Below are positions 1 to 39,896 of a stretch of 39,896 bases of DNA, piece by piece. Origin of the DNA: a virus. The first letter of the stretch is position 1, and each line of letters begins with the position of its first letter. Made by a program: the position numbers and the translations under genes. Under the pieces are notes generated by a model. The model was given only the letters and a program-made list of their open reading frames with translations, was not told where the DNA came from and did no database searches. The stretch spans positions 1 through 39,896 of IMG/VR virus record IMGVR_UViG_3300005832_000027, one strand, 5' to 3'.

Positions 1-2
1 AT

Positions 3-1073
3 ACAACGGATACCGGAGGAGCAAACGACGATAGTGAAGTCACATTCACATTTGAGGGAGCAAATGATTTTCGTCTAGCTTCAGGAGATACTGGGGCGCA
101 GAATAAAGGGACTTCGCTTTCTGGTGATGCTAATTTACCGGTATCCGATGATATTGCAGGAACAGCAAGGGATGGAACCACACCCGAGTGTGGATATTTT
201 GAAATTCCAAGCGGAGGTCCACCGGAGTATAATGGATCTGGTAGTTTATCGACAGCTATTGAAATTGACGGATCTGGATCGTATGATGCTCCCCCGGAAT
301 ACGACGGATCTGGCGATTTAAACATTTACATAAATGCAACCGGAAGCGGTGGGTATATAATTGTCGGTGAGGGCGCTTTGGATGTGCCTTTAACTATATC
401 AGGAGCCGGACAATATATAATATCCTCAACCTCCGCCAATCTTGAAATTCAGATCGGCATGGTCGGTGCAGGAACTTATGAACCTCCCCCGGAATATGAC
501 GGAGACGGTGACTTATCTCTGGACATCGAAATGTCAAGTAGTGGAACCTATTCCGGACCGATAGTTGGCACCGGTGACCTATCGATAGAATTTATCGCAA
601 CGGGTAGCGGATCATATGTAATTTTAGGAAATGGAAATTTATACCTCGAAATAAGTGCTGATGGACACGGTCGCGTGTTCCAGCCAATAAACGGAGTTGG
701 TGAAATGCAACTAATATTAAATGTAAATGGTGATGGAAGCTACAGCGGAGTATTACATACCCTCGTTGTCAGTCCTGATTCAGCACAAATTTCTCCGGAA
801 GCGACTAAACTTTTTACAGTTATAGGATATGATGCCGTAGGAAATATCGTTGACACCGGCCCCATAGTATGGTCTACAACAGCCTCCGGGCCCGAACAAG
901 GGTCTATCGATGAGGATACAGGGTTATTCACGGCCGGAACCGAGATAGGAGGGCCATACACTGTTACAGCCACTGTAGGAGCTATTCATGATGATGCCAT
1001 TATCACAGTCACTGATACAGTTTGTGCTGCAATCAATTCTTCCATTTCGATTGATGTCGCGATCCATGTTTAA
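3..1073 (+). CDS. Repetitive fibre/adhesin-like protein, 5'-truncated
   Basis: The frame is open from the window edge to a TAA, so the N-terminus lies outside. The first ~60 visible residues (a short Asp-Ile-Ala-Gly segment before a Gly-Tyr-Phe-Glu-Ile ending) look like the exit of a right-handed parallel beta-helix. Then come at least seven degenerate repeats of about 30 residues, alternating a G-x-G-x-L strand with a G-S-G-x-Y strand and a recurring PPEYDG linker. A C-terminal block (about the last 110 residues, starting LVVSPDSAQISPEA) matches a bacterial Ig-like Big2 domain. This build is typical of a surface-exposed fibre or adhesin. It converges on the leftward genes that follow. Whether it belongs to the phage or to flanking DNA is unclear (see the repeat at 39804). 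Confidence 0.7.
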   Translation, partial: TTDTGGANDDSEVTFTFEGANDFRLASGDTGAQNKGTSLSGDANLPVSDDIAGTARDGTTPECGYFEIPSGGPPEYNGSGSLSTAIEIDGSGSYDAPPEYDGSGDLNIYINATGSGGYIIVGEGALDVPLTISGAGQYIISSTSANLEIQIGMVGAGTYEPPPEYDGDGDLSLDIEMSSSGTYSGPIVGTGDLSIEFIATGSGSYVILGNGNLYLEISADGHGRVFQPINGVGEMQLILNVNGDGSYSGVLHTLVVSPDSAQISPEATKLFTVIGYDAVGNIVDTGPIVWSTTASGPEQGSIDEDTGLFTAGTEIGGPYTVTATVGAIHDDAIITVTDTVCAAINSSISIDVAIHV

Positions 1074-1122
1074 ATATATTCGGGAAAAAATATGCCGCGA
1101 CGAAACATAGGATTGCGAAGGA

Positions 1123-1165
1123 GATAATGTCCTCAGGCACCCGCAGATTTTATGCCCTGTTGTGT
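1123..1165 (-). repeat. Short attC-like element ending the nuclease cassette
   Basis: Read on the minus strand it opens with ACACAAC, has a GGGCAT / GTGCCTGAG half-stem and ends at GACATTAT, where the usual GTT is ATT. The nuclease stop codon lies inside. It is shorter and weaker than the other elements, so the assignment rests on its place at the end of the series and on the shared ACACAAC box and GGGTGCCTGAG arm (also in the 2868 and 3362 elements). Confidence 0.4.
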
Positions 1166-1669
1166 GCTGTTGTCAACGGCCGTTTCGATACTGACTGTAG
1201 CACGGTTTTTAGTTTCGTAGACATAACAGCGGATGCTAACTCCCGGCGGAGGATTCTGGCCGATCCTCCGAAGTACCGAAAGTAAAATTGATATCTCGGG
1301 GCATTTAAAAGATCTCGGCTCAAAAATCGGCGGCTCACACTTGCGATAAATACTTCTGCCAGAAACTTCTAACAATCCCCACTTTTCAGGGAGATCAGAT
1401 ACAGAAATAAGGTCTCGCGGACAACAATAGTATCGATAATCCCCTAACGCATTTTCAGGATGCCGACGCCATTCTTTTTTTTGATCGGCAATAAAATCGC
1501 TACGAGAAACCTTGCACTCAATTAAAGTCGAAATGTTGCCATTAAAACCGATAGCATCCGCTTCTTCCCCAATGGAAGCAAGCTCCGTAATTACCACAGA
1601 ATTACCTTTTCGAAGCCATCGAGCGGCTCTATCTACGAGATCGGAATGATTTAAATGTTTTTCGGCCAC
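1133..1669 (-). CDS. PD-(D/E)XK nuclease-like protein
   Basis: 178 aa. It starts with a helical segment (HSDLVDRAARWLRKG), followed by Glu, an ADAIGF strand and TLIECKVSRSDF. This is the E...D...ExK arrangement of PD-(D/E)XK enzymes seen in a small phage protein family that also carries the WGLLEV strand found here near residue 97. The catalytic D and ExK are intact. The predicted role is DNA cleavage or recombination; the substrate is unknown. The C-terminal residues (QQGIKSAGA) are encoded by the attC-like element at 1123. The last third is almost identical in DNA to the truncated gene at 39726, where the C-terminus is different. Confidence 0.75.
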   Translation of the reverse strand: MAEKHLNHSDLVDRAARWLRKGNSVVITELASIGEEADAIGFNGNISTLIECKVSRSDFIADQKKEWRRHPENALGDYRYYCCPRDLISVSDLPEKWGLLEVSGRSIYRKCEPPIFEPRSFKCPEISILLSVLRRIGQNPPPGVSIRCYVYETKNRATVSIETAVDNSTQQGIKSAGA

Positions 1670-1713
1670 AGACTATAACTCCAATTTGACGACTATATTA
1701 TTCCTTCGGCGCT

Positions 1714-1995
1714 TCACCAATCGCCGCCATCGTTTGGAATATTAACAAAGCCTACTATATAATCCGGATCAATACCGCCATTACTATTTGCAATGTGTTC
1801 ACTGTTTGGACCTGAACGCATTACGCATAGTGTACCACTTGCGGAAAATAGCCACAGTGATTTAGGCCAGGTGGCGGCAACTCTTTTTAATGCACTAATT
1901 GCACGTTCTTCATCTTTTGTTAATTCGACCACATCTGTTCCTTCCGATGCTGCTATGCATAGCCGCTGTTGTGTACAAGTTGAAAGGATCTCCAT
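1714..1995 (-). CDS. Small phage protein of the WPKSLWLFSASG type
   Basis: 93 aa from the ATG at 1995. A helix (LTKDEERAISALKRVAATWP) leads into KSLWLFSASGTLCVMR and the ending VGFVNIPNDGGDW, a pattern I know from small uncharacterised proteins of many phages; the function is unknown. The frame stays open upstream to about 2217, but family resemblance begins only after residue ~18, so the true start could be this ATG or one further in. The first codons overlap one arm of the 22-bp inverted repeat at 1968. Confidence 0.65.
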   Translation of the reverse strand: MEILSTCTQQRLCIAASEGTDVVELTKDEERAISALKRVAATWPKSLWLFSASGTLCVMRSGPNSEHIANSNGGIDPDYIVGFVNIPNDGGDW

Positions 1996-2248
1996 AGTGT
2001 AAAGCAGAGAAGGGTTGTTGTCTCTTGCGAGGTCGGCGCACCCCTGCACCATCAGCGGCACGGCAAGGCCCACAAGATAATTCCTTGTGCATAGACCGTT
2101 TGTTTTCTCTGCAATACAAAATAAAAATCCTTTCAACTTGTACACAACGCCTTGCCGCACTCGCCAGCAGTAGGAAGAGGGGTCCAAACATTGGGAGTAA
2201 CCCCACCACCGACACAATTGGCTCTTTCGAGATGTTAGCTTTTTTCAC
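1910..2248 (-). CDS. Possible small membrane protein, extent uncertain
   Basis: A GTG at 2248 follows GGAAGAGGGCGACC, a fair ribosome site. The first ~35 residues hold one hydrophobic stretch (IVSVVGLLPMFGPLFLLL). Beyond that the frame runs through the attC-like element at 2142 and into the next gene in another frame, with arginine-rich, uncharacteristic sequence. I think only the N-terminal part, if any, is a real product. No family recognised. Confidence 0.25.
   Translation of the reverse strand: MKKANISKEPIVSVVGLLPMFGPLFLLLASAARRCVQVERIFILYCRENKRSMHKELSCGPCRAADGAGVRRPRKRQQPFSALHYGDPFNLYTTAAMHSSIGRNRCGRINKR
1968..2148. repeat. Perfect 22-bp inverted repeat, arms 1968-1989 and 2127-2148
   Basis: The two arms are exact reverse complements (GTTGTGTACAAGTTGAAAGG plus AT) separated by 137 bp. 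Each outer end is a GTTGTGT/ACACAAC box as in the attC-like elements. The enclosed segment encodes no convincing gene. It could be a very small cassette bounded by two sites in opposite sense, or a hairpin formed after cassette rearrangement. Confidence 0.6.
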
Positions 2249-2286
2249 GGTCGCCCTCTTCCTATTGATGGCTGCGGTTGTTGTAC
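2142..2286 (-). repeat. attC-like element
   Basis: On the minus strand it runs from GTACAAC (2286) to GTTGTGT (2142). The paired arms share CCGCA next to the boxes but otherwise match poorly, so this is one of the weaker members of the series. It overlaps the poorly defined gene at 1910-2248. Confidence 0.35.
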
Positions 2287-2309
2287 GATGTAAAGACAGC
2301 CTCCGCATA

Positions 2310-2459
2310 CTACTTTCGGAGGGCCATCGCGATTGATAGTAACGTTACACCAATCCCGGAAACAATAGTTTGCCAAAAAGGAACATGAACAGCTTGAAAA
2401 ATAGACGAAAGAATAACAACCAAACCACCTGCCGTTAAACAAAATACTTTTATTGACAT
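2310..2459 (-). CDS. 49-aa membrane protein
   Basis: ATG at 2459, placed 8 nt after AAGGAG. The product has two hydrophobic segments (residues ~5-17 and ~31-46) joined by a short polar turn and ends in ALRK, as expected for a small inner-membrane hairpin protein. No family recognised. It is one of the cassette-type genes, and its ribosome site lies in the direct repeat at 2471-2506. Confidence 0.6.
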   Translation of the reverse strand: MSIKVFCLTAGGLVVILSSIFQAVHVPFWQTIVSGIGVTLLSIAMALRK

Positions 2460-2470
2460 TTCAAAAACTC

Positions 2471-2723
2471 CTTGCCACCCGAACTATATTTTAGCATTTG
2501 TTGTATGAAGTGCCCGGCGATTCCTAATTTTAACCGGGCGCTCACTGTTAAAATGACAGTTTTCGATGCTGCACCGCCGCCGATATCGTGAATGCATTTT
2601 GCACTTGTTGAAAGCCTCGTGTGGACATTGTTCCATAAAGTCCCACCAAATAACTTTAATTGTCGGAGGAAAATTACTCACTTAATACCTCCCACCCGGT
2701 TTACAATTTAGCATTTGTTGTGT
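2471..2723 (-). repeat. Direct repeats of ~36 bp bracketing a 65-aa gene
   Basis: Copies at about 2471-2506 and 2689-2723 share, on the minus strand, ACAACAAATGCTAAA, then about 8 variable bases, then CGGGTGG and a purine-rich ribosome site. Each copy carries the end of the upstream gene and the ribosome site of the next. The 65-aa gene between them therefore has the form of a discrete inserted unit. Confidence 0.55.
2484..2681 (-). CDS. 65-aa Cys/His-rich protein
   Basis: Starts at GTG 2681, five nt after GGGAGG, directly after the stop of the upstream gene (TAAGTG). Contains CPHEAFNKCKMH and later CSIENCHF, so two Cys pairs with nearby His that could bind zinc. No homologue recognised. Its last residues (HTTNAKI) are encoded by the repeat it shares with its neighbour. 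Confidence 0.5.
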   Translation of the reverse strand: MSNFPPTIKVIWWDFMEQCPHEAFNKCKMHSRYRRRCSIENCHFNSERPVKIRNRRALHTTNAKI

Positions 2724-2849
2724 ATAGTAAAGGTTGCCTCCATAGCGAACAGCAGTATACTGTCTCGTTACGGGTAAACAGTTTCGTTCTAACCGAGACG
2801 CAGGCCGTACCAAGTGTGGTCTCGAATTTATAACTGCGGATATAACCAT
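2682..2849 (-). CDS. 55-aa hypothetical protein
   Basis: ATG at 2849, 10 nt after AAAGG and just downstream of the GTTGTGT box of the element at 2868, which is where a cassette gene is expected to begin. Basic, with no recognisable domain. Its last residues (YYTQQMLNCKPGGRY) fall in the direct repeat. The reading frame is short, so the call is tentative. Confidence 0.4.
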   Translation of the reverse strand: MVISAVINSRPHLVRPASRLERNCLPVTRQYTAVRYGGNLYYTQQMLNCKPGGRY

Positions 2850-2867
2850 AAAAGCAACCTTTGTTTT

Positions 2868-3008
2868 ACACAACGGACTCAGGCACCCGCCCGAAGTTGC
2901 CACGCTTGACAAACATCACTTCCAAAACAGCAATCACAGTTTGACACTTTGAAACGCTTCGAACACGCAAAGCAGTTGAGTGGCAATTTTGGGCCGCCTG
3001 TGTTGTGT
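2868..3008 (-). repeat. attC-like element, strong
   Basis: On the minus strand it starts with ACACAAC (3008) and ends with GTTGTGT (2868), which are exact complements. Inside, AGGCGGCCCAAAATTGCCAC pairs with GTGGCAACTTCGGGCGGGTGCCT, leaving a few unpaired bases (GGACT) on one strand only. One-sided extrahelical bases and conserved AAC/GTT ends are features of integron attC sites. The stop codon of the 104-aa gene lies within it. Confidence 0.65.
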
Positions 3009-3193
3009 ACAGGCAGTGCGGCGGGTTCCGCTGCTTTGGCGGCACTCCTCGCAACAGTCTCGCAAAAAGCAGTAAACAATGATATCTCGATCAGTTTTAC
3101 AGCAAGGATAGAAACTCTGAAATCAATATATCCATCCGTAAAATACTTATCTATGGTCTCGCGTAAAAGTATTGACAATACTAAATGGTCCAC
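2879..3193 (-). CDS. 104-aa protein with Cys-rich tail
   Basis: The start is GTG 3193, after GAGGAGGCACAA; the frame is open further upstream, but that part lies in the preceding attC-like element. The N-terminal ~60 residues are helical and mixed polar. The last ~45, encoded in the attC-like element, include CFACSKRF and CDCCFG, a possible zinc-binding set, ending AWQLRAGA. That ending resembles ARQIRASA of the gene at 3373. Function unknown. Confidence 0.5.
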   Translation of the reverse strand: MDHLVLSILLRETIDKYFTDGYIDFRVSILAVKLIEISLFTAFCETVARSAAKAAEPAALPVHNTGGPKLPLNCFACSKRFKVSNCDCCFGSDVCQAWQLRAGA

Positions 3194-3231
3194 TTGTGCC
3201 TCCTCTTTAATAAATTTATGAGCCGCATTGC

Positions 3232-3336
3232 TTATAACGGTCCGGCGATATGTACTGTGTGCCCGACCACTACCGCCTCGTGCCATTTCATAACTTTCGA
3301 CAGTCTGTAGCCGCCCCGGTCGGTGAGATAGGGCAC
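3232..3336 (-). CDS. Possible 34-aa peptide in a minimal cassette
   Basis: GTG at 3336 preceded by AGGCGG; the product runs MPYLTDRGGY... to ...HIAGPL and stops at a TAA inside the GTTATAA box. It fills almost the whole space between two adjacent attC-like elements. The sequence looks protein-like, but the frame is too short to be sure. Confidence 0.3.
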   Translation of the reverse strand: MPYLTDRGGYRLSKVMKWHEAVVVGHTVHIAGPL

Positions 3337-3363
3337 ATTGTATATATCCGCCTGCTATTGCGT
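3232..3363 (-). repeat. attC-like element
   Basis: On the minus strand GGCGGATATATACAATGTGCCC (left) pairs with GGGCACACAGTACATATCGCC (right), flanked by an ACGCAAT box and a GTTATAA box with a one-sided GGACC bulge. It abuts the element at 3362, so almost the entire cassette is recombination-site-like DNA. Confidence 0.5.
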
Positions 3364-3527
3364 GTAACGTTCTCAGGCACTCGCCCGAATTTGCCGGGCT
3401 ATAAAATCGTAAGAAGCTCTAGCAAACCACTGGTTGCTTGTTAGCGAATCTTCCACTGTCGGACGGAGAGTAAGCAAGTGAGCATATACCTCATTCCAAT
3501 CCGGCAATTTTGGGCTGCCTGTTGTGC
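3362..3527 (-). repeat. attC-like element
   Basis: Minus strand: GCACAAC at 3527, end box GTTACAC at 3362. AGGCAGCCCAAAATTGCC pairs with GGCAAATTCGGGCGAGTGCCT near the ends, again with extra bases on one strand. The stop codon of the 124-aa gene lies between the arms. Closely related to the element at 2868. Confidence 0.55.
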
Positions 3528-3747
3528 AGGGCTTTGCCCGAACTGTAGCCGGAGACTCCACAGAGAGCCGTATAGCCGCTGTTGTGTGCTGTTCTTCCGC
3601 TTCCATAGACTCCGGCGGCGCGAGCTTAAGATTAGTGACTATCCTACTTTTTTTCCAATCAATAGCCTTTTGAACTTCTGGGTCATCGTTAGATTCTTCC
3701 AGATGATTGAGTCTGCATAAATTTAATAAATCGTCATTAAAACCCAT
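3373..3747 (-). CDS. 124-aa hypothetical protein
   Basis: ATG at 3747, seven nt after GAAGGAG. Acidic, helical N-terminal half (NDDLLNLCRLNHLEES...), then a segment around residue 50 (MEAEEQHTTAAIRLSV) whose DNA carries the ACACAACAGCGGCTAT motif common to several cassette ends. It ends FIARQIRASA inside the element at 3362. No family recognised. The gene may be a fusion of a cassette gene with the remnant of another attC-like arm. Confidence 0.5.
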   Translation of the reverse strand: MGFNDDLLNLCRLNHLEESNDDPEVQKAIDWKKSRIVTNLKLAPPESMEAEEQHTTAAIRLSVESPATVRAKPCTTGSPKLPDWNEVYAHLLTLRPTVEDSLTSNQWFARASYDFIARQIRASA

Positions 3748-3750
3748 ATG

Positions 3751-4038
3751 TTACTCCTTCTTTGGCGCCGCACCCAATTCTCGAAAGGCAGAACTGAGGC
3801 GCAGATTGCACCACAACTTGAAGTCACGTATTTGAAAACCCTCTTGTTCATCGCAAAACTCTCCGAAAACACGCAAAGCCGCCGCATAGTCGCTGTTGTG
3901 TATTGCGGAAGGAAGGGCTGCTAAATCAGAAAATTTAACAAAAAACTCCGTGTTAGGATAAGCTTCCATAAAATCGGCATCCGCCACTTCTAAACTACCA
4001 GAATTCATGTGAATATATTTTGTTAAATTTTTATACAA
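3751..4038 (-). CDS. 95-aa hypothetical protein
   Basis: I chose TTG 4038 because AGTCAGGAG stands just upstream; the ORF could also open at 4068, but that lies in the preceding attC-like end. Contains HNSDYAAALRVFGEF, the same Asn-x-x-Tyr-x-Ala-Ala-Leu pattern as the gene at 6967 (NNDYTAALEDE), encoded by related attC-like left-arm DNA (ACACAACAGCGACTATGC). Ends RELGAAPKKE. Function unknown. Confidence 0.5.
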   Translation of the reverse strand: MYKNLTKYIHMNSGSLEVADADFMEAYPNTEFFVKFSDLAALPSAIHNSDYAAALRVFGEFCDEQEGFQIRDFKLWCNLRLSSAFRELGAAPKKE

Positions 4039-4062
4039 TGTAAAACTCCTGACTGTAGTTTC

Positions 4063-4195
4063 GCACAATGGACCGGCGGCTATGCGCAGTTCTGCAGAGC
4101 AGAATTGAGGCGCTTCGCCAGATCTTCACTTTGAATATCAGATATTTCAATTTTATTATCTACGCGGCTTCAAGCGCCGCCTTATAGCCTTTGAC
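4063..4195 (-). repeat. attC-like element, right half well conserved
   Basis: The right arm (minus strand GCGCATAGCCGCCGGTCC followed by ATTGTGC) is almost identical to that of the element at 6950, and the two share about 55 bp including GCGCCTCAAT. The left arm near 4185 (GGCTATAAGGCGGCGC) is weaker and lacks a clear AAC box. Confidence 0.45.
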
Positions 4196-4417
4196 CGCCT
4201 TAATTTTATTTTTTCGGCCTATACCACGCCACCCGATAGACAAATCTGATTTTATTAAATACCCCCACCTTGAAAAACAATGATTGCACCAAAACAAGCC
4301 ACGCGAAACAGTTGATTCAAAGCCACAAACCGATCCGCAGCACCAACATACTCGCCCGTGTTTAATGTAGCATAGTCGCATTAACATCCGAAATATATTA
4401 CCTAATTTTCTTAACAT
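4160..4417 (-). CDS. 85-aa zinc-ribbon protein
   Basis: ATG at 4417, seven nt after GGGAGG. After a basic helix it has CWCCGSVCGFE and then FWCNHCFSRWG, two Cys pairs 20-odd residues apart as in a zinc ribbon. C-terminus VKGYKAALEAA. Probably a nucleic-acid-binding or structural zinc protein; no specific family recognised. The TAG lies at the edge of the element at 4063. Confidence 0.55.
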   Translation of the reverse strand: MLRKLGNIFRMLMRLCYIKHGRVCWCCGSVCGFESTVSRGLFWCNHCFSRWGYLIKSDLSIGWRGIGRKNKIKAVKGYKAALEAA

Positions 4418-4502
4418 TAACAACCTCCCTTGCCGAAAAACTACAGTATAAAAGTCAAATTTATTGCCACCAACGTCCGATGCTACCAGACGTTTTACGG
4501 TA

Positions 4503-4646
4503 TTACTTATTGAGACTGCCGGGACGATGAAAGCCCCCCGTTACAATTCTCGTTTGTGTTTGTATGTGATTGGACGGGGACTGCTTCATTTTATCGTAAT
4601 CATTAACCCTTACTTCAAGACGCTTTCTTCTCGCTGACGTTTTCAC
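4503..4646 (-). CDS. 47-aa basic protein
   Basis: GTG at 4646 after GGAGGTTTTCC. Very basic start (KTSARRKRLEVRVND) and ending GGFHRPGSLNK. It lies just downstream of the GTTGTGT box of the element at 4701. The longer frame back to 4718 is part of that element, so I do not use it. Function unknown. Confidence 0.5.
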   Translation of the reverse strand: MKTSARRKRLEVRVNDYDKMKQSPSNHIQTQTRIVTGGFHRPGSLNK

Positions 4647-4700
4647 GGAAAACCTCCAATTTAGTGAGCCAAACTCCAATGCCCGAGAGGACTTTGTTTT

Positions 4701-4787
4701 ACACAACGTACCGGGCATAAGAGAAGTAGCCGCAGGCTATTTGGCTTGACCCGAAGGCGAAGCCGTAGCTTTTATGCCCTGTTGTAT
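4701..4787 (-). repeat. attC-like element, strong and short
   Basis: 87 bp. On the minus strand ATACAAC (4787) then AGGGCATAAAAG pairs with CTCTTATGCCC and GTTGTGT (4701), with GTACC unpaired on one side. This is the clearest attC geometry in the window: paired AAC/GTT boxes, a short stem, and a one-strand bulge next to the box. Confidence 0.65.
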
Positions 4788-5009
4788 GATGTGTTGATTT
4801 TTTTCCGCATTCAGGGAGGTGCATTCGGCACTAATCGAGAAACCGAACGCAAATACCAGAAGTACCCCACACCAAAAGGTGATAACGTGCACCCATCCAA
4901 AAGGCTTACGTTCATCATCTATTTTTCCAATATTGGATATTAGTTGCCCACTTAGAAAAGATATTATTCCAACGAAGAGCACTATTAAAATGTATCCATT
5001 ACTTGACAT
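4737..5009 (-). CDS. 90-aa two-helix membrane protein
   Basis: ATG at 5009, six nt after GGAGG; the upstream frame to 5030 has no ribosome site. Two transmembrane helices (about residues 6-23 and 41-60) are separated by a charged loop. The tail QHIIQQGIKATASPSG is encoded by the attC-like element, and QQGIK recurs at the end of the nuclease at 1133. Function unknown; membrane proteins of this size are common cassette cargo. Confidence 0.6.
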   Translation of the reverse strand: MSSNGYILIVLFVGIISFLSGQLISNIGKIDDERKPFGWVHVITFWCGVLLVFAFGFSISAECTSLNAEKNQHIIQQGIKATASPSGQAK

Positions 5010-5047
5010 AATGCACCTCCTATAATTCAAAGAAAAATCAACAATTT

Positions 5048-5180
5048 ACACAATGGACCGCTAAACGGCTGAAGTTGCGTCGTTACTTAAAAAGTGATAC
5101 GTATCTGACATAATATTCTTATCGGAAACAACAGAAACCCACCGGTTGAGCAAAGCAATTGCAGCCTTTAGCTGTTGGTG
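5048..5180 (-). repeat. attC-like element
   Basis: Minus strand: CACCAAC (5180), then GCTAAAGGCTG pairs with CAGCCGTTTAGC and ATTGTGT (5048), with GGTCC unpaired. 133 bp. The TAG of the 96-aa gene lies in the right arm. Confidence 0.55.
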
Positions 5181-5351
5181 GGCAACAGCGGACTGTTGCT
5201 CGGCGCTCCCCTTGCTCTGCCGGACTTCACTAAACTTTGGAACCAACATATCGTATATTTTATGACGCCACTTGGTAGAATCTAAACCGAATGTTTCAAC
5301 TATATCGGAAACAGTTTCGCTAACAAGTATCGAAAACTGGGCATCGTTCAT
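5061..5351 (-). CDS. 96-aa helical protein
   Basis: ATG at 5351, 10 nt after GAAAGG. Mostly amphipathic helix: ETVSDIVETFGLD, then a Gln-rich middle (SAEQQSAVAHQQLKAAIALL) and a Trp-Val segment. No signal peptide or cysteines. No family recognised. It ends in the element at 5048. Confidence 0.5.
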   Translation of the reverse strand: MNDAQFSILVSETVSDIVETFGLDSTKWRHKIYDMLVPKFSEVRQSKGSAEQQSAVAHQQLKAAIALLNRWVSVVSDKNIMSDTYHFLSNDATSAV

Positions 5352-5403
5352 AAATAAATAACCTTTCTTCGTCCGGCCTTTAACATGGCCGCCGAGCTAT
5401 TGC

Positions 5404-5479
5404 CTGCAACGTTTGACAATGGCCGAAGCCGCACAGCGGTTTGGGAGAGGCTTTGCGAACTGGCCATTGTTTGTTGGCA
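5404..5479 (-). repeat. attC-like element, strong and compact
   Basis: 76 bp. Minus strand TGCCAAC (5479), ACAATGGCC and GCAAAGCC pair with GGCTTCGGCCATTGT and GTTGCAG (5404), with AAACG offset on one side. Wholly non-coding here, so the stem is not a by-product of a protein motif. Confidence 0.65.
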
Positions 5480-5506
5480 GATGTAAACCGCCGCTCCTTA
5501 TTCAAC

Positions 5507-5707
5507 TTAAATTTTGATACAAGCGCCATATTCGGTACCGACCCAAACCTGCTTGCCGTTGCGATCTTCCTCGAAGTGCTCAAATCTCACACATCTGCCA
5601 CCAATGCAGTGAACGTTGAATTCATGAGGTACGGCATGCTGGCACGGTTTTTTAAACCTATCGGTGACAACGAAACAACGTTCCGATTTATTGCTACATT
5701 GAACCAC
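5507..5707 (-). CDS. 66-aa Cys-rich protein
   Basis: GTG at 5707 after AAAGGAGCTTTT. Six cysteines, including CQHAVPHEF, HCIGGRC and a C near the end (YGACIKI), suggest a small metal-binding or disulphide-stabilised protein. It has the GKQVWVGTEY strand of a beta-sheet mini-domain. No family recognised. It lies between two compact attC-like elements, which makes it a clean single-gene cassette. Confidence 0.55.
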   Translation of the reverse strand: MVQCSNKSERCFVVTDRFKKPCQHAVPHEFNVHCIGGRCVRFEHFEEDRNGKQVWVGTEYGACIKI

Positions 5708-5754
5708 AAAAGCTCCTTTCAAAATTTAATACAATATGGTCGGCAGTTTATTTC

Positions 5755-5829
5755 TGCCAACGGTCCGCGGCTATGTAACGTGGCTTCAGCCATGTGCCGC
5801 AGGCCGTAAGTATATAGCCGCTGTTGTAA
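5755..5829 (-). repeat. attC-like element, strong and compact
   Basis: 75 bp. Minus strand TTACAAC (5829), AGCGGCTATAT pairs with CATAGCCGC, then GGACC bulge and GTTGGCA (5755). A small hairpin (TGGCTGAAGCCA) occupies the centre. It is preceded by a short ATG-led frame starting at the ATG just upstream, which I regard as incidental. Confidence 0.6.
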
Positions 5830-5867
5830 ATTGTTTTTGCGGTTTCCATAGTGCAACTGGCCGCTCG

Positions 5868-6098
5868 CTATTCTACCACAATTTTGTTAAAGGAATCTAA
5901 CTTTAAACCCAACGATTTTGATATACTACCATGTAAGCTTAAAGTTCCGCTGGTAGTAAACGAACATATACTTCCTCCCGTGATACGGTTACCACTGTCG
6001 TCTACTGCAATTACACTTACTTCTCCATCGCCCTCATCGTGTAACCGCAACGTGATGCTCGATGACTCTTTGTCTGCAAACACTTTGAAATTTGGCAT
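5868..6098 (-). CDS. 76-aa beta-rich phage-type protein
   Basis: ATG at 6098 following GGTGGTGTC. Short beta strands (FKVFADKESSSITLRLHDEG, SVIAVDDSGNRI) and the ending SLGLKLDS resemble small uncharacterised proteins found in phages and prophages. Cytoplasmic, no motifs. With the proteins at 1133 and 1714, it suggests that the array carries phage-derived cargo. Confidence 0.55.
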   Translation of the reverse strand: MPNFKVFADKESSSITLRLHDEGDGEVSVIAVDDSGNRITGGSICSFTTSGTLSLHGSISKSLGLKLDSFNKIVVE

Positions 6099-6143
6099 GA
6101 CACCACCGTTTGTTAAATGTTCGTCAAAAACATAATGACAAAA

Positions 6144-6326
6144 TCACCATAATGAAAGGTCTAATGGCCAATCGGAAGAACGATAAGAACTCCCGCCACC
6201 AGTTAGCAATGACCATAAATATGATCGATGTCGTGTTTCATGAGGATAAAGATGTGTTGAATTCATATCATTTATACCGTGATGCATTGTTATCTGGTCA
6301 GAACTCTGCTTTCTTAATTCTTTCAT
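6144..6326 (-). CDS. Doubtful 60-aa frame
   Basis: Its ATG overlaps the stop of the gene above in an ATGA, which favours coupling. The composition (His, Ser, Trp-rich with LTGGGSSYRSS) is not protein-like, and another frame holds a hydrophobic 30-residue peptide (VIANWWREFLSFFRL...). This 220-bp stretch may instead be a decayed cassette end; TGCTAACTGG and CCATTAGACC at about 6170-6220 could be its boxes. Confidence 0.2.
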   Translation of the reverse strand: MKELRKQSSDQITMHHGINDMNSTHLYPHETRHRSYLWSLLTGGGSSYRSSDWPLDLSLW

Positions 6327-6898
6327 TTTGACTTTGGTAAAAGTGAATTTAAATAATCAAACATTTCTTCAACAATCTCTTTATTACAGCTTACAACCAG
6401 CTCCATATCTTGAATCGTTGAAATCATAAAGCATATCTCATCTTTATGAATTGTCTTTTTTGCAGCTTTTTTGCTTAATAGTCCTGACCTACACATCACC
6501 ACTAATTCATTATAAATATGTGAAACCACCCTCCTGTAATTATCTAATTTTTTCCCCAAGTCGGTATCTCCATAATATTCTTTTCGAAAATTATCTATCC
6601 AGCAATTACCATTTTCATCTTTCCATTTTCTTATAAAATTCATCGCTTCAAGTATTTCATTGGAAGCGAATCTTTCTTTGTATCTCATTATAATTAAAGC
6701 TTGGGTGTTTTTTTTCGAAGACTCAGCGGAAAACCATGAAAATATGGCCGCTGCACAAGCAGCAACCACTGTAATAGAATTAATAAATCTATCAAATATG
6801 TTTTCATTAAAATTACCACCCTGCGCCCATGTCGCAAGCAAAAAAAAAGTTATTAACGTTAATATTATTATTGATCTGTTTAGTCTTATGTTATTCAT
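6323..6898 (-). CDS. DUF4760-like membrane protein
   Basis: 191 aa. N-terminal pair of membrane helices (about residues 9-24 and 39-58, IIILTLITFFLLATW and VVAACAAAIFSWFSAE), followed by a helical cytosolic domain (FASNEILEAMNFIRKW, YRRVVSHIYNELVVMCRSGLLSKK). This arrangement matches DUF4760-type proteins, which occur in integrons and mobile elements and have no settled function. The gene is far more AT-rich than its neighbours, suggesting separate acquisition. It is the largest cargo gene of the array. Confidence 0.6.
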   Translation of the reverse strand: MNNIRLNRSIIILTLITFFLLATWAQGGNFNENIFDRFINSITVVAACAAAIFSWFSAESSKKNTQALIIMRYKERFASNEILEAMNFIRKWKDENGNCWIDNFRKEYYGDTDLGKKLDNYRRVVSHIYNELVVMCRSGLLSKKAAKKTIHKDEICFMISTIQDMELVVSCNKEIVEEMFDYLNSLLPKSK

Positions 6899-6949
6899 TG
6901 TATTTTTATTCCTTTCCTCCCGCGCTCTTATCCGTGGTTTACAAATTGA

Positions 6950-7108
6950 TTACAACGGACCGGCGGCTATGCGCAGTGCTGCTTTTGCAAAGCGGCATTG
7001 AGGCGCGCTGCCAGTTCCGCCATACCATTTTTCGATCTATTGATAATTGTTTCTTCACTCATCCACAGATTCAGCTCATCTTCCAGCGCCGCCGTATAAT
7101 CGTTGTTA
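6950..7108 (-). repeat. attC-like element
   Basis: Right arm GCGCATAGCCGCCGGTCCGTTGT on the minus strand; left arm near 7090-7108 with ACAACGATTATACGGCGGC. The right half is nearly the same as at 4063. The gene at 6967 ends inside it with a TAG in GCATAG. The full stem is interrupted, so it is less regular than the short elements. Confidence 0.5.
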
Positions 7109-7266
7109 GAAGCTGTATCCGGCGACTCATTAGTGTTCTGCCGGGACAATTCATCGCGTGCTTCGGTAAGAGCGTCGATACTCAACGAAAGTATCCGCAT
7201 AGTATCGTTCGGTGCGGTAGCGGTAAACTGTTTACCGATTTCTATTAATGTTTGTGAAGACTTCAA
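6967..7266 (-). CDS. 99-aa hypothetical protein
   Basis: Start TTG 7266, preceded by AGGAGTGTCTT. Helical with SIDALTEARDELSRQ, then SNNDYTAALEDELNLWM and ARLNAALQKQHCA. The YxAAL motif recurs in the genes at 3751 and 9446. The C-terminal ~45 residues are encoded by the attC-like element. Function unknown. Confidence 0.55.
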   Translation of the reverse strand: MKSSQTLIEIGKQFTATAPNDTMRILSLSIDALTEARDELSRQNTNESPDTASNNDYTAALEDELNLWMSEETIINRSKNGMAELAARLNAALQKQHCA

Positions 7267-7332
7267 AAGACACTCCTTTATTTATTGTTAAACCCGGCCT
7301 ATAATCGTGATCTCGCCGGATATTGATTCTAA

Positions 7333-7602
7333 CTACATGATATGTGAAATATATTTATATAGTGGTAGATTTTTTCTTTTGCAATATTGTATTGCAGTTT
7401 TCCAGTCTACACGGCTATCGTGTATTAATCCTGGATCATCTATTAACAGTAGAGCTTTTCCAACCAAAGAAAAATACGCCGAGCTTGAACCAGTGGGGTG
7501 TTTAGTCAGTTCTTTGGTTAATAAATCTTTATATTTCAGCGATTCTGTTCTCGCCGCTGTCCATGCTGCGTCTTCGACGTATACATTATGTGCTTTTTTC
7601 AT
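7333..7602 (-). CDS. 89-aa hypothetical protein
   Basis: ATG at 7602 with only a weak upstream purine run. Lys/Tyr-rich (KKAHNVYVEDAAWTAARTESLKYKDLL), with a hydrophobic KALLLIDDPGLI segment and the basic ending CKRKNLPLYKYISHIM. No known domain. Below its stop is a short CCGGC...GCCGG inverted repeat (about 7297-7319), which may be the first, degenerate cassette boundary of the array. Confidence 0.45.
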   Translation of the reverse strand: MKKAHNVYVEDAAWTAARTESLKYKDLLTKELTKHPTGSSSAYFSLVGKALLLIDDPGLIHDSRVDWKTAIQYCKRKNLPLYKYISHIM

Positions 7603-7660
7603 ACTAACAAATATATATCTATTTTAATAGTTATGCAATATTTAATTTTATTTAATTTCA

Positions 7661-7730
7661 GATCCCTCTCGTGCCCGCCATCTGGTCCACCTTTCGGGAT
7701 GTTCCTTATCGAGGCGGGGTGAGAGGGATG
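7661..7730. repeat. Long inverted repeat, probable structured RNA
   Basis: ATCCCTCTCGTGCCCGCC (7662-7679) pairs with GGCGGGGTGAGAGGGAT (7713-7729) over about 15 positions with a 33-nt loop. No T-tract follows on either strand, so it is not a simple terminator. It follows the zinc-finger gene at 7732 and lies in the same frame as that gene, whose reading frame continues 27 codons beyond the stop. Confidence 0.5.
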
Positions 7731-7731
7731 A

Positions 7732-7896
7732 TTATTCTCCGTGGTACGTTTCATCTTGGTTCCTGAATCTATTCAGCTCATGGCAGCTTTCCAGGTGCTC
7801 TTCCATCTCCTCCCGAGGTATTCGTCGGCCACAGTACCCGCAGGCGCAGGAGGGGTGAGAGGCTAAGTGGGCTTCTGTTTCTTTTCCGTAGTTCAT
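7732..7896 (-). CDS. 54-aa C2HC-type zinc-finger protein
   Basis: ATG at 7896, six nt after the stop of the gene above. Residues 17-39 read C-A-C-G-Y-C ... H-L-E-S-C-H, a compact finger with CxCxxC and HxxxCH ligands. Small finger proteins like this are frequent in phage early operons, where they bind nucleic acid or host factors. Past the TAA the same frame continues with HPERWTRWRARE before a second TAA, so the ancestral protein may have been about 82 residues. Confidence 0.65.
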   Translation of the reverse strand: MNYGKETEAHLASHPSCACGYCGRRIPREEMEEHLESCHELNRFRNQDETYHGE

Positions 7897-7900
7897 GGGA

Positions 7901-8389
7901 TTACCTATTCAATATTTCTATTCCCAATTGATAGAATTCCTCTTTGGGGCGTTCGTTTTCCATCATTGAAAATATGTTACTACAAAATATCTGCGTCGCT
8001 TTTTTATCAACAAGTGTTGATGATGTCTGGTAATATTTTGTTTTCATGAGGTATTCGTGAAGTAGGGGATCAATCCATTTATACCGGTATTCGGAATTGG
8101 CTTTGACGAAATTATAAACCTCATCATATTTACCAAAAGGAATTGTGTCCCATGAATAAGAGAAAACGACATTAATTAACTTAAAGATTTCAGATACCGG
8201 AATATTATTATTCGTGCCAATAAAGTGCAGCTTTTTTGTCCATTCGTTGAATTTTTTATGTACTGGATCTTCCTTGATTTTTAAATGAACTCGCGGATCT
8301 TCAGGATCGTTCTCACCAAACAGGCTTTCAATGGTATCATAATCTCTGATATTATCGGGTAATCTTCCGTGTTTAGTGTACGTCGGCAT
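7901..8389 (-). CDS. 162-aa hypothetical protein, replication neighbourhood
   Basis: Overlaps the 3' end of the replication gene by 17 nt, so it is probably translationally coupled. Helical and charged, with many Lys and Tyr (KFNEWTKKLHFIGTNNNIPVSEIFKLINVVF). No Walker motif, so it is not an ATPase helicase loader of the DnaC type. Its place suggests a helper in replication, but no family is recognised. Confidence 0.6.
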   Translation of the reverse strand: MPTYTKHGRLPDNIRDYDTIESLFGENDPEDPRVHLKIKEDPVHKKFNEWTKKLHFIGTNNNIPVSEIFKLINVVFSYSWDTIPFGKYDEVYNFVKANSEYRYKWIDPLLHEYLMKTKYYQTSSTLVDKKATQIFCSNIFSMMENERPKEEFYQLGIEILNR

Positions 8390-9101
8390 TTTTCTTTCTC
8401 TCTTCCTCTTCGGCTATGTAATCTTTCTTCCAGTTCTCAAAGCTGTCATCGCGCTCTTCACCAACCACTTCCGGGGGCTCGTCCATCCACCGACACTGAT
8501 TGAGGTATGTGGAAGGGTGGGGGATGTACTGCCCTCCGTCTTTGATCCATTGCTCGGAGTATTTCTGCCATGACAGGGCTTTGAGGATGAGCTCTATCGT
8601 TTCTTCAGGTGCCTCTATTTTGTTCCATATCTTTTCAGCAGCACCTTTTCCAACCTTCTTTGGGTATGCGCTCCAGAAGGTGTCAAATACCTTCTCCCCC
8701 TGTACCCCCTCTTCTTTTATATCTTTAATATCATTTCTAGTTTCATCTTCAGTATGATTTGCTGATGATTTGCGTATGATTTGCGTATGATTACCGTATG
8801 ATTTCTTTTTTCTACCTGAAATACCTGGGTGACTCTTTGATTCACAATAACTTACACGCCTTTCTATCTCTTCCATCATTCTCTCGTTGTAATAAAGACC
8901 ATTTGAATCCTGTTTAAATTTCTTCCAAACAGGGGAATCATATGATTTCAATATTTGAAATAACTCTTCCTTAGTGAATATTCCTTCCTGGTGTTGTGAA
9001 CAGAGGGCTCGTATATATTGACCTACCTGTTCATCGGATAATCTAGATGTTCCAGTTAAAAAATCTGAGGTATAAAATAGAACTGCTGGATCTCGTGCCA
9101 T
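8373..9101 (-). CDS. Phage replication protein, DUF1376 N-terminal domain
   Basis: 242 aa. Residues 1-60 (DPAVLFYTSDFLTGTSRLSDEQVGQYIRAL...) match DUF1376, a winged-helix-like domain of phage replication initiators. A variable linker rich in Asn/His follows. Residues ~135-215 (FDTFWSAYPKKVGKGAAEKIWNKI... YIPHPSTYLNQCRW) match the C-terminal part found in lambda O/DnaD-like proteins. It would recognise the origin and recruit the host helicase. The linker DNA holds four near-copies of TATGATTTGC (8752-8803), a possible origin-type iteron set inside the gene, as in lambda O. Starts directly after the stop of the gene above. Confidence 0.8.
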   Translation of the reverse strand: MARDPAVLFYTSDFLTGTSRLSDEQVGQYIRALCSQHQEGIFTKEELFQILKSYDSPVWKKFKQDSNGLYYNERMMEEIERRVSYCESKSHPGISGRKKKSYGNHTQIIRKSSANHTEDETRNDIKDIKEEGVQGEKVFDTFWSAYPKKVGKGAAEKIWNKIEAPEETIELILKALSWQKYSEQWIKDGGQYIPHPSTYLNQCRWMDEPPEVVGEERDDSFENWKKDYIAEEEERKKNADVH

Positions 9102-9278
9102 TTATTTATCGACCTGAAATAAATAATCTTCATCTTTAATTTCAACTTCTTCTTCCATAAATTCTATCATAAGTGGACGATCTTCAAAAACATCAATTTG
9201 TTCCAATGGCACTTTATGGATTTTTGAAAGGAGGGTTTTAACGTCGAGGAGAGTATACAGAAGTCTAGTCCGCGGCAT
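9102..9278 (-). CDS. 58-aa acidic protein
   Basis: ATG at 9278 after AAGGAGGCGCC, an excellent ribosome site; its TAA is immediately followed by the ATG of the replication gene. Basic N-terminus (MPRTRLLYTLLDVKTLLSK), then an acidic tail (FMEEEVEIKDEDY). No family recognised; the position suggests a translational partner of the replication protein. Confidence 0.6.
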   Translation of the reverse strand: MPRTRLLYTLLDVKTLLSKIHKVPLEQIDVFEDRPLMIEFMEEEVEIKDEDYLFQVDK

Positions 9279-9445
9279 GGCGCCTCCTTATATAAAAAGC
9301 CCCCCGGCTGTCTTGGTGATGACCCGCGAAGATATACACCTAAACGCCGCTCCGTGGAGGATCGGTTGCCGAGGGAGTTATTTTCTTAAACTGGTTTCGC
9401 GAGCCATACCCCTAATATACGATATTTCGGGAAGAAGAGGGGGGA
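9279..9445 (-). promoter_or_regulatory. Leader with promoter-like and attenuator-like sequences
   Basis: This 167-bp gap holds, on the minus strand, CGTATATTAGGGGTATG (9406-9422), which closely resembles the -10 region of the early promoter at 10889. Nearer the gene at 9278 lies AGCCGGGGGGCTTTTT, a short hairpin with a T-run. There is no good -35, so promoter activity is tentative. Confidence 0.35.
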
Positions 9446-9694
9446 TTATTTTCCGTATTTCTTATTCAGGCGCACGATGCGCTTAACCAGGACATCGATA
9501 TCTTCTTTAAACAGGAGCCCGTGCGGCTGGCGATTCAGCTTTTCACGTAGCGCAGCGGTGTAGGTGGGTTGTGGTTTTCCTCCATCAGACCAAAACGAAC
9601 ACTCAGATGCCATGCCAAAATTTCCCCGTGCTTTATAACCTGGACAATCCCTATCTTTCCTCTCGTGTATACACTCGAAATGAAATCTACTCAT
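9446..9694 (-). CDS. 82-aa Cys/His protein
   Basis: ATG at 9694, preceded by AGGAGGTAAAT. N-terminal FECIHERKDRDCPGY and later ECSFWSDGG give a CxxH...C...C arrangement that could bind a metal. C-terminal half helical with YTAALREKLNRQ, the same YxAAL motif seen in two cassette genes, and a basic end (RLNKKYGK). Function unknown. Confidence 0.6.
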   Translation of the reverse strand: MSRFHFECIHERKDRDCPGYKARGNFGMASECSFWSDGGKPQPTYTAALREKLNRQPHGLLFKEDIDVLVKRIVRLNKKYGK

Positions 9695-9703
9695 ATTTAC
9701 CTC

Positions 9704-9877
9704 CTATTTATATTTCAGCCAATCACTCATTTCCGGGCAGTGGTGGTTCTCATCATCTCTGACGTTTTCCAAGCAAAACGGGCATGTGTATTGATGTTTT
9801 CCTAAATTGATGAGAATAAGCATTACGACGCACCCTACCACACAAAGCCCGAAATATACTATCAGAACCTCAATCAA
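9704..9877 (-). CDS. 57-aa membrane protein with zinc ribbon tail
   Basis: Start TTG 9877, six nt after GAGGAGG, overlapping the stop of the gene above. One transmembrane helix (residues 2-24, VLIVYFGLCVVGCVVMLILI), then YTCPFC and HHC, a CxxC...HxC metal site on the cytosolic side. No named family. It is too short for ordinary gene finders, but the ribosome site and composition support it. Confidence 0.6.
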   Translation of the reverse strand: MIEVLIVYFGLCVVGCVVMLILINLGKHQYTCPFCLENVRDDENHHCPEMSDWLKYK

Positions 9878-10187
9878 CGAATACCTCCTCGAAAGAAATT
9901 ATATTCGTTCCATCGAGCACGCAGGGCTTAAGTGTGTGCCGGATAGTAAGAGGCGTCTTCGAAGTAACTTCTGAAACGATAAAGACAGACCCGATTCCAT
10001 GCTCGATTTTGAAGCACCCCTTAGCCGCGGCTACCACATATTTGCGGAGCGTAAAATTGTAACTGTTTTGATGCCTCCCGCTGCAACCCTCAATCAGAAG
10101 ACCTACGCGGTAAAAGTGGGACATGATGCTCGGCTCTATGTGCTCCTCCAAGCTAACAGAATTTGTACTGACGATATGATCTATCAC
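9870..10187 (-). CDS. 105-aa hypothetical protein
   Basis: ATG at 10187 overlaps the stop of the gene above (ATGA). Mixed alpha/beta, with repeated hydrophobic strands (VGLLIEGCSG, YVVAAAKGCFKIEHGIGSVFIVSEV, TPLTIRHTLKPCVLDG). No known motif. The end of the gene supplies the ribosome site of the TTG-started membrane protein below. Confidence 0.55.
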   Translation of the reverse strand: MIDHIVSTNSVSLEEHIEPSIMSHFYRVGLLIEGCSGRHQNSYNFTLRKYVVAAAKGCFKIEHGIGSVFIVSEVTSKTPLTIRHTLKPCVLDGTNIISFEEVFVD

Positions 10188-18538: not shown

Positions 18539-19588
18539 ATGTTAATTGAAATGAACCTTAGACTGAGTCCATACATCGATGGAATACCTCTCGGCAAAGA
18601 GGTGGCGTGGAAAAACGCGACAAGAAACGATGAAGTCACTATTAAATCGTGGGATAAGCAGTGGATCGAGCAGACAAAGCTGAATTCGACTGACTACGAC
18701 TTCACGGCCAACAGCGCCATGCAGGAACATGGAAAATGCGCGCTTCAGCCGGTAATCCTCATGGGTGCCGGGCCGTCACTCGAAAGAAATTGGAAAGACC
18801 TGATCGGTGACGGAAAAAACTGCTTCGGACGCCGGAATATAAAAATTGTCACCAATGTTCATAATTTCCCGTTCTGCGAAGACCGGGGGCTGATGACGAG
18901 TGACGATTATTACATGGTCCTCGACGCCGGAGACGTGTGCATCAAGGAGATGCATGAAGGCGGCGCGCAGAACCCTGAATGGTACTGGAAACATACCGAA
19001 GGCCGGACTCTGGTAGCTTATCATGGGACGCACCCGGATTTCATCAGAAAATGGCGCGGTAAGATCTTATGGTTTACCACGCCGTGCGCTTCTATTGAAC
19101 TGGCACAAGAAATGATGAAGCTGGTCGATATCTCGAAAGTCCCCGGGTTCAACGTCGGCGGGAACGTCATGGGGGCCGCCCTTTACTTCTCAAGAGCAGT
19201 TCTCGGGTGTTCGATACCTATTTTCATGGGAATGGATCTCTGCTTTTCATATGATCAGAAGTTCCACCCGTGGGATTGCTGGTATAATAAAAGCTTCAGC
19301 GGAGTAATGCCGTGGACTGATATATGGGGTAACCGCGTATGGACATGGCAGTCGTATTTCGGGTTCAAAAACTGGTTTGATTACATGGTATGCGGAGGGA
19401 CCGGAAACAACGCTCAATTATGGATCAACGCCACGGAAGGCGGGATCATGGGGGCATACCCGGAGGGTAATCTGCGTCAGATCATTCAGATCGATCTAAA
19501 AACAGTTTTACACATGTTTAATATGAGCAGCTTGTTGCCGTCAATGCTGGAAAAATCGGCGGGCGGACAACTGAATCTACTTTTCTGA
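18539..19588 (+). CDS. DUF115 / Maf-type glycosyltransferase
   Basis: 349 aa, ATG after GAGGAGAAAAA. Residues ~71-82 are VILMGAGPSLERN, the nucleotide-sugar-binding signature of DUF115 (MptE-like) proteins. Residues ~205-240 are FNVGGNVMGAALYFSRAVLGCSIPIFMGMDLCF with a following His-Pro, the second conserved block. The end holds NATEGGIMGAYPEG. In flagellated bacteria Maf/DUF115 enzymes transfer CMP-activated nonulosonic acids to Ser/Thr of flagellin. Here it lies between the head and fibre genes, and the window also carries a NeuB/CMP-sugar operon. The substrate is probably a virion protein; this is inference. Confidence 0.8.
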   Translation: MLIEMNLRLSPYIDGIPLGKEVAWKNATRNDEVTIKSWDKQWIEQTKLNSTDYDFTANSAMQEHGKCALQPVILMGAGPSLERNWKDLIGDGKNCFGRRNIKIVTNVHNFPFCEDRGLMTSDDYYMVLDAGDVCIKEMHEGGAQNPEWYWKHTEGRTLVAYHGTHPDFIRKWRGKILWFTTPCASIELAQEMMKLVDISKVPGFNVGGNVMGAALYFSRAVLGCSIPIFMGMDLCFSYDQKFHPWDCWYNKSFSGVMPWTDIWGNRVWTWQSYFGFKNWFDYMVCGGTGNNAQLWINATEGGIMGAYPEGNLRQIIQIDLKTVLHMFNMSSLLPSMLEKSAGGQLNLLF

Positions 19589-37767: not shown

Positions 37768-37790
37768 TTGATTTCCTCGAATTCTATAAG

Positions 37791-37806
37791 TACCCCTATA
37801 TATAAC
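37791..37806 (-). promoter_or_regulatory. Promoter-like motif upstream of the VRR-NUC and sugar genes
   Basis: On the minus strand GTTATATATAGGGGTA resembles the sequences at 10881-10898 and 9406-9423 (TATAT-A--GGTA). A leftward internal promoter is possible, though the genes also continue an upstream operon. Confidence 0.35.
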
Positions 37807-37848
37807 AGCTCCTGCTCCTGTCGTTAAGTGATCCGGCATATCTAATAA

Positions 37849-39745: not shown

Positions 39746-39896
39746 TTTTTATCCTTTCTGACCGTTGTGTGCTGTTGTCAACATCTCCGCAACCACCTTC
39801 TGTGGCCGTTTCGATACTGACTGTAGCACGGTTTTTAGTTTCGTAGCCATAACAGCGGATGCTAACTCCCGGCGGAGGATTCTGGCCGATCCTCCG
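39726..39896 (-). CDS. PD-(D/E)XK nuclease-like protein, C-terminal fragment
   Basis: Open from the window edge, 56 residues to a TAA inside the next gene. The first 31 residues are the same as residues ~134-164 of the protein at 1133 except Gly for Val; then it has a 7-codon insertion (TEGGCGD) and a different end (STQRSERIKNG...) after VDNSTQ. It is the same gene in a non-cassette setting, coupled to the DUF3799 gene. N-terminus beyond the window. Confidence 0.8.
   Translation of the reverse strand, partial: RRIGQNPPPGVSIRCYGYETKNRATVSIETATEGGCGDVDNSTQRSERIKNGNRDL
39804..39896 (-). repeat. 93-bp near-identical copy of 1178-1270
   Basis: 92 of 93 positions match (C at 39847 against A at 1221). 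A further 18-19 bp (GTTGTGTGCTGTTGTCAAC) match beyond a 21-bp gap. The copy runs up to the last base of the window, as when a contig ends in, or circularises through, a repeated region. Confidence 0.9.

What the first reader, a model, noticed from the sequence alone, without database searches (positions are those of the whole stretch)
1123..7111. Integron-like gene-cassette array carried in a phage-type genome
Seen: about twenty co-oriented small genes, each with its own ribosome site and most without a visible promoter. Many end in or beside imperfect inverted repeats (best at 2868-3008, 4701-4787, 5404-5479, 5755-5829). Each repeat opens with an AAC box and closes with GTT on the minus strand and has extra bases (often GGACC) on one arm. 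Known: integron attC sites have exactly these traits, and cassette arrays are promoterless. Inference: this is a cassette array in a phage or prophage. At least three cargo genes look phage-derived. I know of no well-described phage with such an array. No intI is in the window.
Basis: partly seen in the sequence, partly recalled or inferred. Interest (0 to 1): 0.88.

Follow-up and report, generated by a model that had tools for sequence, protein, structure and literature searches.

The report
Phage gene array with integron-like palindromes
A small, probably complete phage genome carries about a dozen little genes laid out like integron gene cassettes, several of them bounded by their own long split palindrome; the sites do not match the known integron sites, so this looks like a new variant of cassette array rather than an ordinary one.

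Summary
About 17 co-oriented minus-strand ORFs lie at 1133-7266. Two covariance models built here from real bacterial attC sites found dozens of attCs in control integrons but nothing in the window. Boxes are not GTTRRRY, spacers are asymmetric (1 versus 5 nt), and the extra bases are on the arm opposite to that in attC. So these are not canonical attC sites.

The array still shows cassette logic. In five units the sequence after the GTT box at a gene's 3' end is complementary, over about 24-45 nt, to that gene's own leader beside the next AAC box, and to no other leader (random-partner p<1e-5). Joining the ends as in an excised circle deepens the hairpin clearly in four of six testable units. 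True integrons show this signature over about 5-11 nt.

The genome is a circularly permuted phage (~38.6 kb) with no recognisable recombinase. Phage-borne CALINs are already published (Qi et al. 2023); new are the non-canonical sites and the extended palindromes. Mobility and recombinase are inferred.

The parts
1129..7333 (-). cassette-like array as a whole, between a phage gene (7333-7602) and, across the circular junction, the RecE-like gene (38864-39745)
2868..3008 (-). hairpin element, AAC box 2868-2874, GTT box 3002-3008
   Evidence: stem 10.8, spacers 1/5; fold z -2.6 on +
3362..3527 (-). hairpin element, AAC box 3362-3368, GTT box 3521-3527; shares CAGGC..GGGC..TTGCC stem with 2868-3008
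   Evidence: D8; z -3.0
4701..4787 (-). hairpin element, AAC box 4701-4707, GTT box 4781-4787
   Evidence: fold z -6.0; model R2
5048..5180 (-). hairpin element with AAT instead of AAC, box 5048-5054, GTT box 5174-5180
   Evidence: (5/1 spacers, exact stem)
5404..5479 (-). hairpin element, AAC box 5404-5410, GTT box 5473-5479
   Evidence: stem 11.5; fold z -2.9
5755..5829 (-). hairpin element, AAC box 5755-5761, GTT box 5823-5829
   Evidence: model R2
6950..7111 (-). hairpin element, AAC box 6950-6956, GTT box 7105-7111
2142..2283 (-). hairpin element, AAC box 2142-2148, GTT box 2277-2283
   Evidence: I8; z -4.5
3232..3356 (-). hairpin element with clear AAC box (3232-3238) and degenerate GTT box
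   Evidence: z -2.6
4063..4196 (-). degenerate hairpin element (AAT box 4063-4069; interior shared with 6950-7111)
   Evidence: (D2, D10)
1122..1165 (-). short hairpin element behind the MmcB-like gene, present in the window's left arm, absent at 39764 and in G001
1968..2148 (-). gene-unit arms: 1968-2011 pairs with 2105-2148 (own score 54, others at most 18)
2717..2874 (-). gene-unit arms pairing across ORF 2682-2849 (own score 29)
4781..5054 (-). gene-unit arms: about 44 nt, includes the ribosome-binding site of the unit's gene (own score 40)
5473..5761 (-). gene-unit arms around ORF 5507-5713 (own score 46)
7105..7333 (-). gene-unit arms of the first unit; the AAC box overlaps the stop codon of the upstream phage gene 7333-7602 (own score 28)
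1133..1669 (-). cargo: MmcB-like protein (PHROG 631), conserved mainly over residues 1-136 of 178
1714..1995 (-). cargo: phage protein, homologues cover only residues 21-93; the N-terminus is encoded by arm and half hairpin
6967..7266 (-). cargo ORF whose C-terminal part is encoded by the hairpin; no database match
6323..6898 (-). cargo: 191-aa ORF, no confident match
39764..39896 (-). second version of the array's downstream end: GTT box joined directly to the RecE leader; 39804-39896 repeats 1178-1270 (92/93)

Best explanation
A phage-borne array of integron-type gene cassettes without its recombinase (CALIN-like), whose attC-like sites are non-canonical. Each cassette is a gene with its own leader and ribosome-binding site, followed by a hairpin bounded by a GTT box on the gene side (R''-like) and an AAC box on the far side (R'-like). 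Proposed mechanism: a recombinase supplied from elsewhere (host or co-resident element; a tyrosine recombinase of IntI type most likely) acts on the folded + (bottom) strand, cuts at the AAC box and inserts or excises the cassette as a circle. The cut splits one long palindrome: one arm becomes the leader of the gene, the other stays at its 3' end. Shown: the hairpins, their common orientation, the boxes, the unit-specific arms, the deeper hairpin re-formed in silico in four of six testable units, the phage context, the absence of a recognised recombinase. Inferred: mobility, crossover point, enzyme, use of a folded single strand.
For: Oriented hairpins beyond chance. Own-unit arms pair and others do not: own up to 54, 156 other pairings mean 4.8 and maximum 18, p<1e-5 (also 69). 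Excised-circle junctions fold deeper with the own arm than with other arms, + strand: -73.8 vs -54.6+-3.4, -61.8 vs -39.2+-5.2, -71.6 vs -57.4+-3.7, -82.0 vs -69.3+-4.3. The same own-cassette rule exists in canonical integrons over 5.3 vs 1.5 contiguous nt and 9-11 nt in the literature (PMC2727003). AAC boxes intergenic, GTT boxes in ORFs. A G follows the AAC in all nine aligned elements, as in most attC sites (PMC2727003). Long box-anchored arm pairs are roughly 60 times denser in the array than in 1.5 Mb of other loci.
Against: attC models negative. No GTTRRRY box; bulge on the wrong arm; asymmetric spacers. Two of six testable units (5823, 3002) show no gain in folding, and seven of 12 adjacent pairs show little arm pairing. 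The one natural breakpoint is at the gene-side box, not the predicted crossover box; the only other indel is not at a box. Boxes were picked by hand with the repeats in view, so p-values are optimistic. No recombinase and no second example known.
Confidence: 0.58

Rival explanations
1. Palindromic selfish DNA (MITE-like or RPE-like) spread through the early genes: units with terminal inverted repeats, or the hairpins themselves, were inserted by a transposase acting on GTTG...CAAC tips.
For: Five units have terminal inverted repeats with common tips; elements are translated in frame as ends of ORFs, as described for Rickettsia palindromic elements (papers, recalled knowledge); homologues of two cargo genes lack the element-encoded ends.
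Against: Arms differ from unit to unit although a transposon family should share them (others at most 18). No target duplication was seen, but this was not tested formally. It does not explain why hairpins and arms alternate and become continuous in the circle.
Confidence: 0.18
2. An ordinary CALIN in decay: canonical attC cassettes captured from a bacterial integron whose sites have drifted beyond the models.
For: Phage CALINs exist (PMC9892861). Relaxed box and spacer rules recover the elements at 4-5 times the rate of the rest of the window. Some elements are clearly incomplete.
Against: The best elements have intact stems and arms, which decay would erase; boxes share a different consensus (GTTGTG) rather than random changes; long arms are not a canonical trait.
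Confidence: 0.14
3. Regulatory repeats: hairpins and arms act in the mRNA, for example by covering ribosome-binding sites or protecting ends, and no DNA mobility is involved.
For: Cluster K mycobacteriophages carry start-associated sequences, some with 17-bp inverted repeats (PMC3203893). In unit 4781-5054 the arm covers the ribosome-binding site. Arms fold on the mRNA strand too.
Against: SAS/ESAS share one consensus; here arms differ between units. Hairpins fold as well or better on the + strand. It gives no reason for the AAC/GTT geometry.
Confidence: 0.1

Closest known systems
CALINs (clusters of attC lacking integron integrase) in phages, e.g. Tetrasphaera phage TJE1, Pseudoalteromonas phage PH101, Polaribacter phage P12002L (Qi et al. 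2023, PMC9892861)
   Same: Co-oriented small genes with hairpin sites, in a phage, without an integrase
   Different: Their attC sites are detected by IntegronFinder/HattCI and five of six tested were recombined by IntI1; TJE1 has 3 attC. Here attC models score nothing, boxes and spacers differ, arms are much longer, and more elements are present
Canonical integron attC sites (GTTRRRY/RYYYAAC, extrahelical bases on L'', central spacer)
   Same: AAC and GTT cores, G after the AAC, imperfect hairpin at the gene's 3' end, own-cassette R'/R'' complementarity
   Different: No GTTRRRY; spacers 1 and 5 nt; extra bases on the R'-L' side; complementarity extends to about 24-45 nt instead of 9-11
Integron of phage Virus Rctr41k (KX853513.1)
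   Same: Phage genome of about 41 kb with co-oriented cassettes; spacer before GTT also ends in ACC
   Different: Has its own IntI-like gene and attC sites that model R3 recognises
MITEs and Rickettsia palindromic elements
   Same: Short palindromic elements, terminal inverted repeats, in-frame translation
   Different: Here the inverted repeats are specific to each unit and alternate with hairpins
Start-associated sequences (SAS/ESAS) of Cluster K mycobacteriophages (PMC3203893)
   Same: Repeated inverted repeats beside gene starts in a phage
   Different: Conserved 13- and 17-bp consensus upstream of genes; no partner at the gene's 3' end

Membership tests
Integron cassette array / CALIN | At least two attC sites recognised by a covariance model of known attC | tested here: not met
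   R1 and R3: no match in the window at E<=10; with filters off at most 10.5 bits and not at the elements' full extent. Published IntegronFinder/HattCI models were not available
Integron cassette array / CALIN | R' box GTTRRRY and R'' box RYYYAAC | tested here: not met
   0 of 11 AAC-side boxes read GTTRRRY; the GTT/AAC core is kept in most, AAT in two
Integron cassette array / CALIN | Extrahelical base(s) on the R''-L'' arm and an unpaired central spacer | tested here: not met
   Best elements have fully paired inner stems and a 5-nt bulge on the R'-L' arm versus 1 nt (definition PMC2727003)
[quoted passage not shown]
   Invariant in the nine aligned elements (column 8)
Integron cassette array / CALIN | Co-oriented genes, one per cassette, site at the 3' end | tested here: met
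   one unit (5823-6956) holds more than one ORF
Integron cassette array / CALIN | Own-cassette complementarity between the two boxes' outer sides | tested here: met
   Strong in five units and longer than in canonical arrays; weak or absent in the others
Integron cassette array / CALIN | Cassettes gained or lost with crossover at the R' box | tested here: inconclusive
   One near-identical relative; one split at the gene-side box, one indel not at a box
Integron cassette array / CALIN | Recombination by an integron integrase | not testable with these tools
   No IntI in the record; host unknown
Complete integron | intI gene with attI | tested here: not met
   TIGR02249 and PF00589 absent from the record
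MITE / palindromic insertion element | One shared terminal inverted repeat among copies | tested here: not met
   Only the tips are shared; non-own pairings at most 18
MITE / palindromic insertion element | Target-site duplication | not tested
   No empty site from a relative to compare
Start-associated sequences (SAS/ESAS) | One conserved consensus at gene starts | tested here: not met
   Leaders share only the box and a few bases

The most novel reading that the evidence does not exclude
A cassette-mobilising system distinct from known integrons: a recombinase, not necessarily IntI, that works on long split palindromes (hairpin plus arms of up to about 45 nt), so that each phage gene travels as a circle whose integration turns one arm into its leader.
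Probability: 0.22. Interest if true: 0.85.

Novelty: new variant of a known kind. Interest (0 to 1): 0.62.

Why it matters
If right, phages host cassette arrays that present attC models cannot see, so surveys of phage-borne integrons undercount them. The split-palindrome signature (a gene's 3' arm pairs with its own leader) does not depend on attC sequence and can be scanned for in any genome, which gives a way to find divergent integron-like systems. It also suggests a route by which small phage genes are shuffled and their ends replaced by element-encoded sequence.

Tried and rejected
Rfam scan of the window: nothing. First generic hairpin finder: too unspecific, both strands alike. DNA and protein searches for relatives of the array in phages, plasmids and viral contigs: for array proteins and elements only the same phage, G001, apart from homologues of two cargo genes. 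Model R2 of the window's own hairpins found three window elements significantly and nothing in 1.29 Mb and 0.12 Mb of other loci; it is a weak model, so this is weak evidence of absence. Defence-gene reading of the cargo: no PADLOC match. Strand preference from wobble pairs: not significant. Reversed polarity (AAC box as R''): considered because of the bulge side and the one breakpoint; rejected because own-unit arms and gene positions fit AAC as R'. Origin of window 1-1128: no relative found. Model R1 alone missed the canonical array of Rctr41k, so a second, broader model R3 was built before calling the window negative.
Full report
What the window is. The record is a 39,896-base virus record. 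A second contig of the same phage (IMGVR_UViG_3300001371_000068, 99.7-99.96% identical) runs from window 34972-39896 straight into window 1271 and on. The genome is therefore circularly permuted, about 38.6 kb, and probably complete; window 1-1177 is an alternative arm. The genome carries small and large terminase, a P22/SU10-like portal and a RecE-like exonuclease. No tyrosine recombinase, serine recombinase or Y1 transposase was recognised. A relative with 77% identical terminase (L002) has early genes without such an array.

The observation. About 17 minus-strand ORFs lie at 1133-7266. Other elements are weaker or incomplete, and some show no excess folding. The AAC-plus-spacer motif occurs on one strand only, and seven of its eight copies are in the array. 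Covariation in the stem is above controls.

Is it attC? I collected 80 bacterial loci with integron integrases and class 1 plasmid integrons, extracted attC sites and built two covariance models, R1 and R3. Both ring in control arrays, including a Vibrio phage and sites not used for training. R1 missed the array of phage Rctr41k; R3, broadened with three of its sites, finds it, two or more untrained sites included. Neither model finds anything in the window with default filters, and with filters off the best scores are about 10 bits at short unrelated palindromes. No AAC-side box reads GTTRRRY. The extra bases are on the arm beside the AAC box, whereas integron extrahelical bases are on the R''-L'' arm (PMC2727003). 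The elements are not canonical attC sites.

What is there instead. The gene units between hairpins are themselves framed by inverted repeats starting at the same boxes. In five units the sequence right of a GTT box pairs with the sequence left of the next AAC box and not with any other (own scores 28-54; 156 other pairings mean 4.8, maximum 18; p<1e-5). Seven other adjacent pairs show little. Boxes were chosen by hand with the repeats in view, so the p-value is optimistic; but the three longest inverted repeats of the whole 39.9-kb window all start at such boxes. A gene's 3' end is thus complementary to its own leader. If the cassette is gene plus hairpin, cut at the AAC box, the two arms meet around the hairpin in the circle. 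In silico this gives clearly deeper folds for four of six testable units and no gain for two. Integron cassettes obey the same rule over about 5 nt here and 9-11 nt in the literature (PMC2727003). Box positions fit: AAC boxes are intergenic, GTT boxes mostly inside ORFs. Box-anchored arm pairs of this length are about 60 times rarer in other loci.

Mechanism. The best reading is an integron-type cassette array with non-canonical sites, moved by a recombinase supplied in trans. Excision, crossover point and enzyme are inferred. The only natural variation seen is ambiguous: two assembly variants split exactly at the GTT box behind the MmcB-like gene (1159 versus 39764), the gene-side box and not the predicted crossover, and a 42-nt indel at 2416-2457 is not at a box. 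Both contigs come from metagenome assembly, so a chimera at 1-1177 is possible.

Cargo. Two genes have phage homologues: the MmcB-like 1133-1669, matched mainly over residues 1-136 of 178, and 1714-1995, matched over residues 21-93 of 93. The unmatched ends are the parts encoded by arm and hairpin, which suggests that gene ends were replaced by or fused to these elements. Other cargo tested has no confident match in Pfam, PHROGs or PADLOC.

Known ground. Phage-borne integrons and CALINs were published in 2023 (PMC9892861), so the general idea is not new. The site type and the long split palindromes were not found in the papers searched, a search limited to open-access text.

Noticed in passing
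L031 (KX853513.1, Virus Rctr41k) 4680-10100: This phage record carries an integron-type integrase gene (annotated xerD-like, 45% identical to IntI1) and at least five co-oriented attC sites by model R3 (6641, 7921, 8415, 8686, 9305; a sixth at about 9973 by eye): a complete phage-borne integron that is not named in the main text of Qi et al. 2023.
   Followed up: partly
window 33045-37339: A set of sugar genes of nonulosonic-acid type on the minus strand: Polysacc_synt_2 dehydratase, GNAT, class-III aminotransferase, CTP transferase, Gfo/Idh-like, NeuB, in the phage core.
   Followed up: no
window 18539-19588: MptE-like domain protein among the structural genes.
   Followed up: no
window 1-1177: Alternative arm with an open-ended ORF (3-1073, +), weakly similar to a virion structural family, joined to the array at the box at 1159; no relative found in viral contigs.
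   Followed up: partly
window 2416-2457: 42-nt in-frame stretch absent from the sister contig G001.
   Followed up: no
window 8752-8806: Short tandem repeat of about 11 nt (GTATGATTTGC) inside the DUF1376-like gene 8373-9101; L002 has a different short repeat in its counterpart.
   Followed up: no
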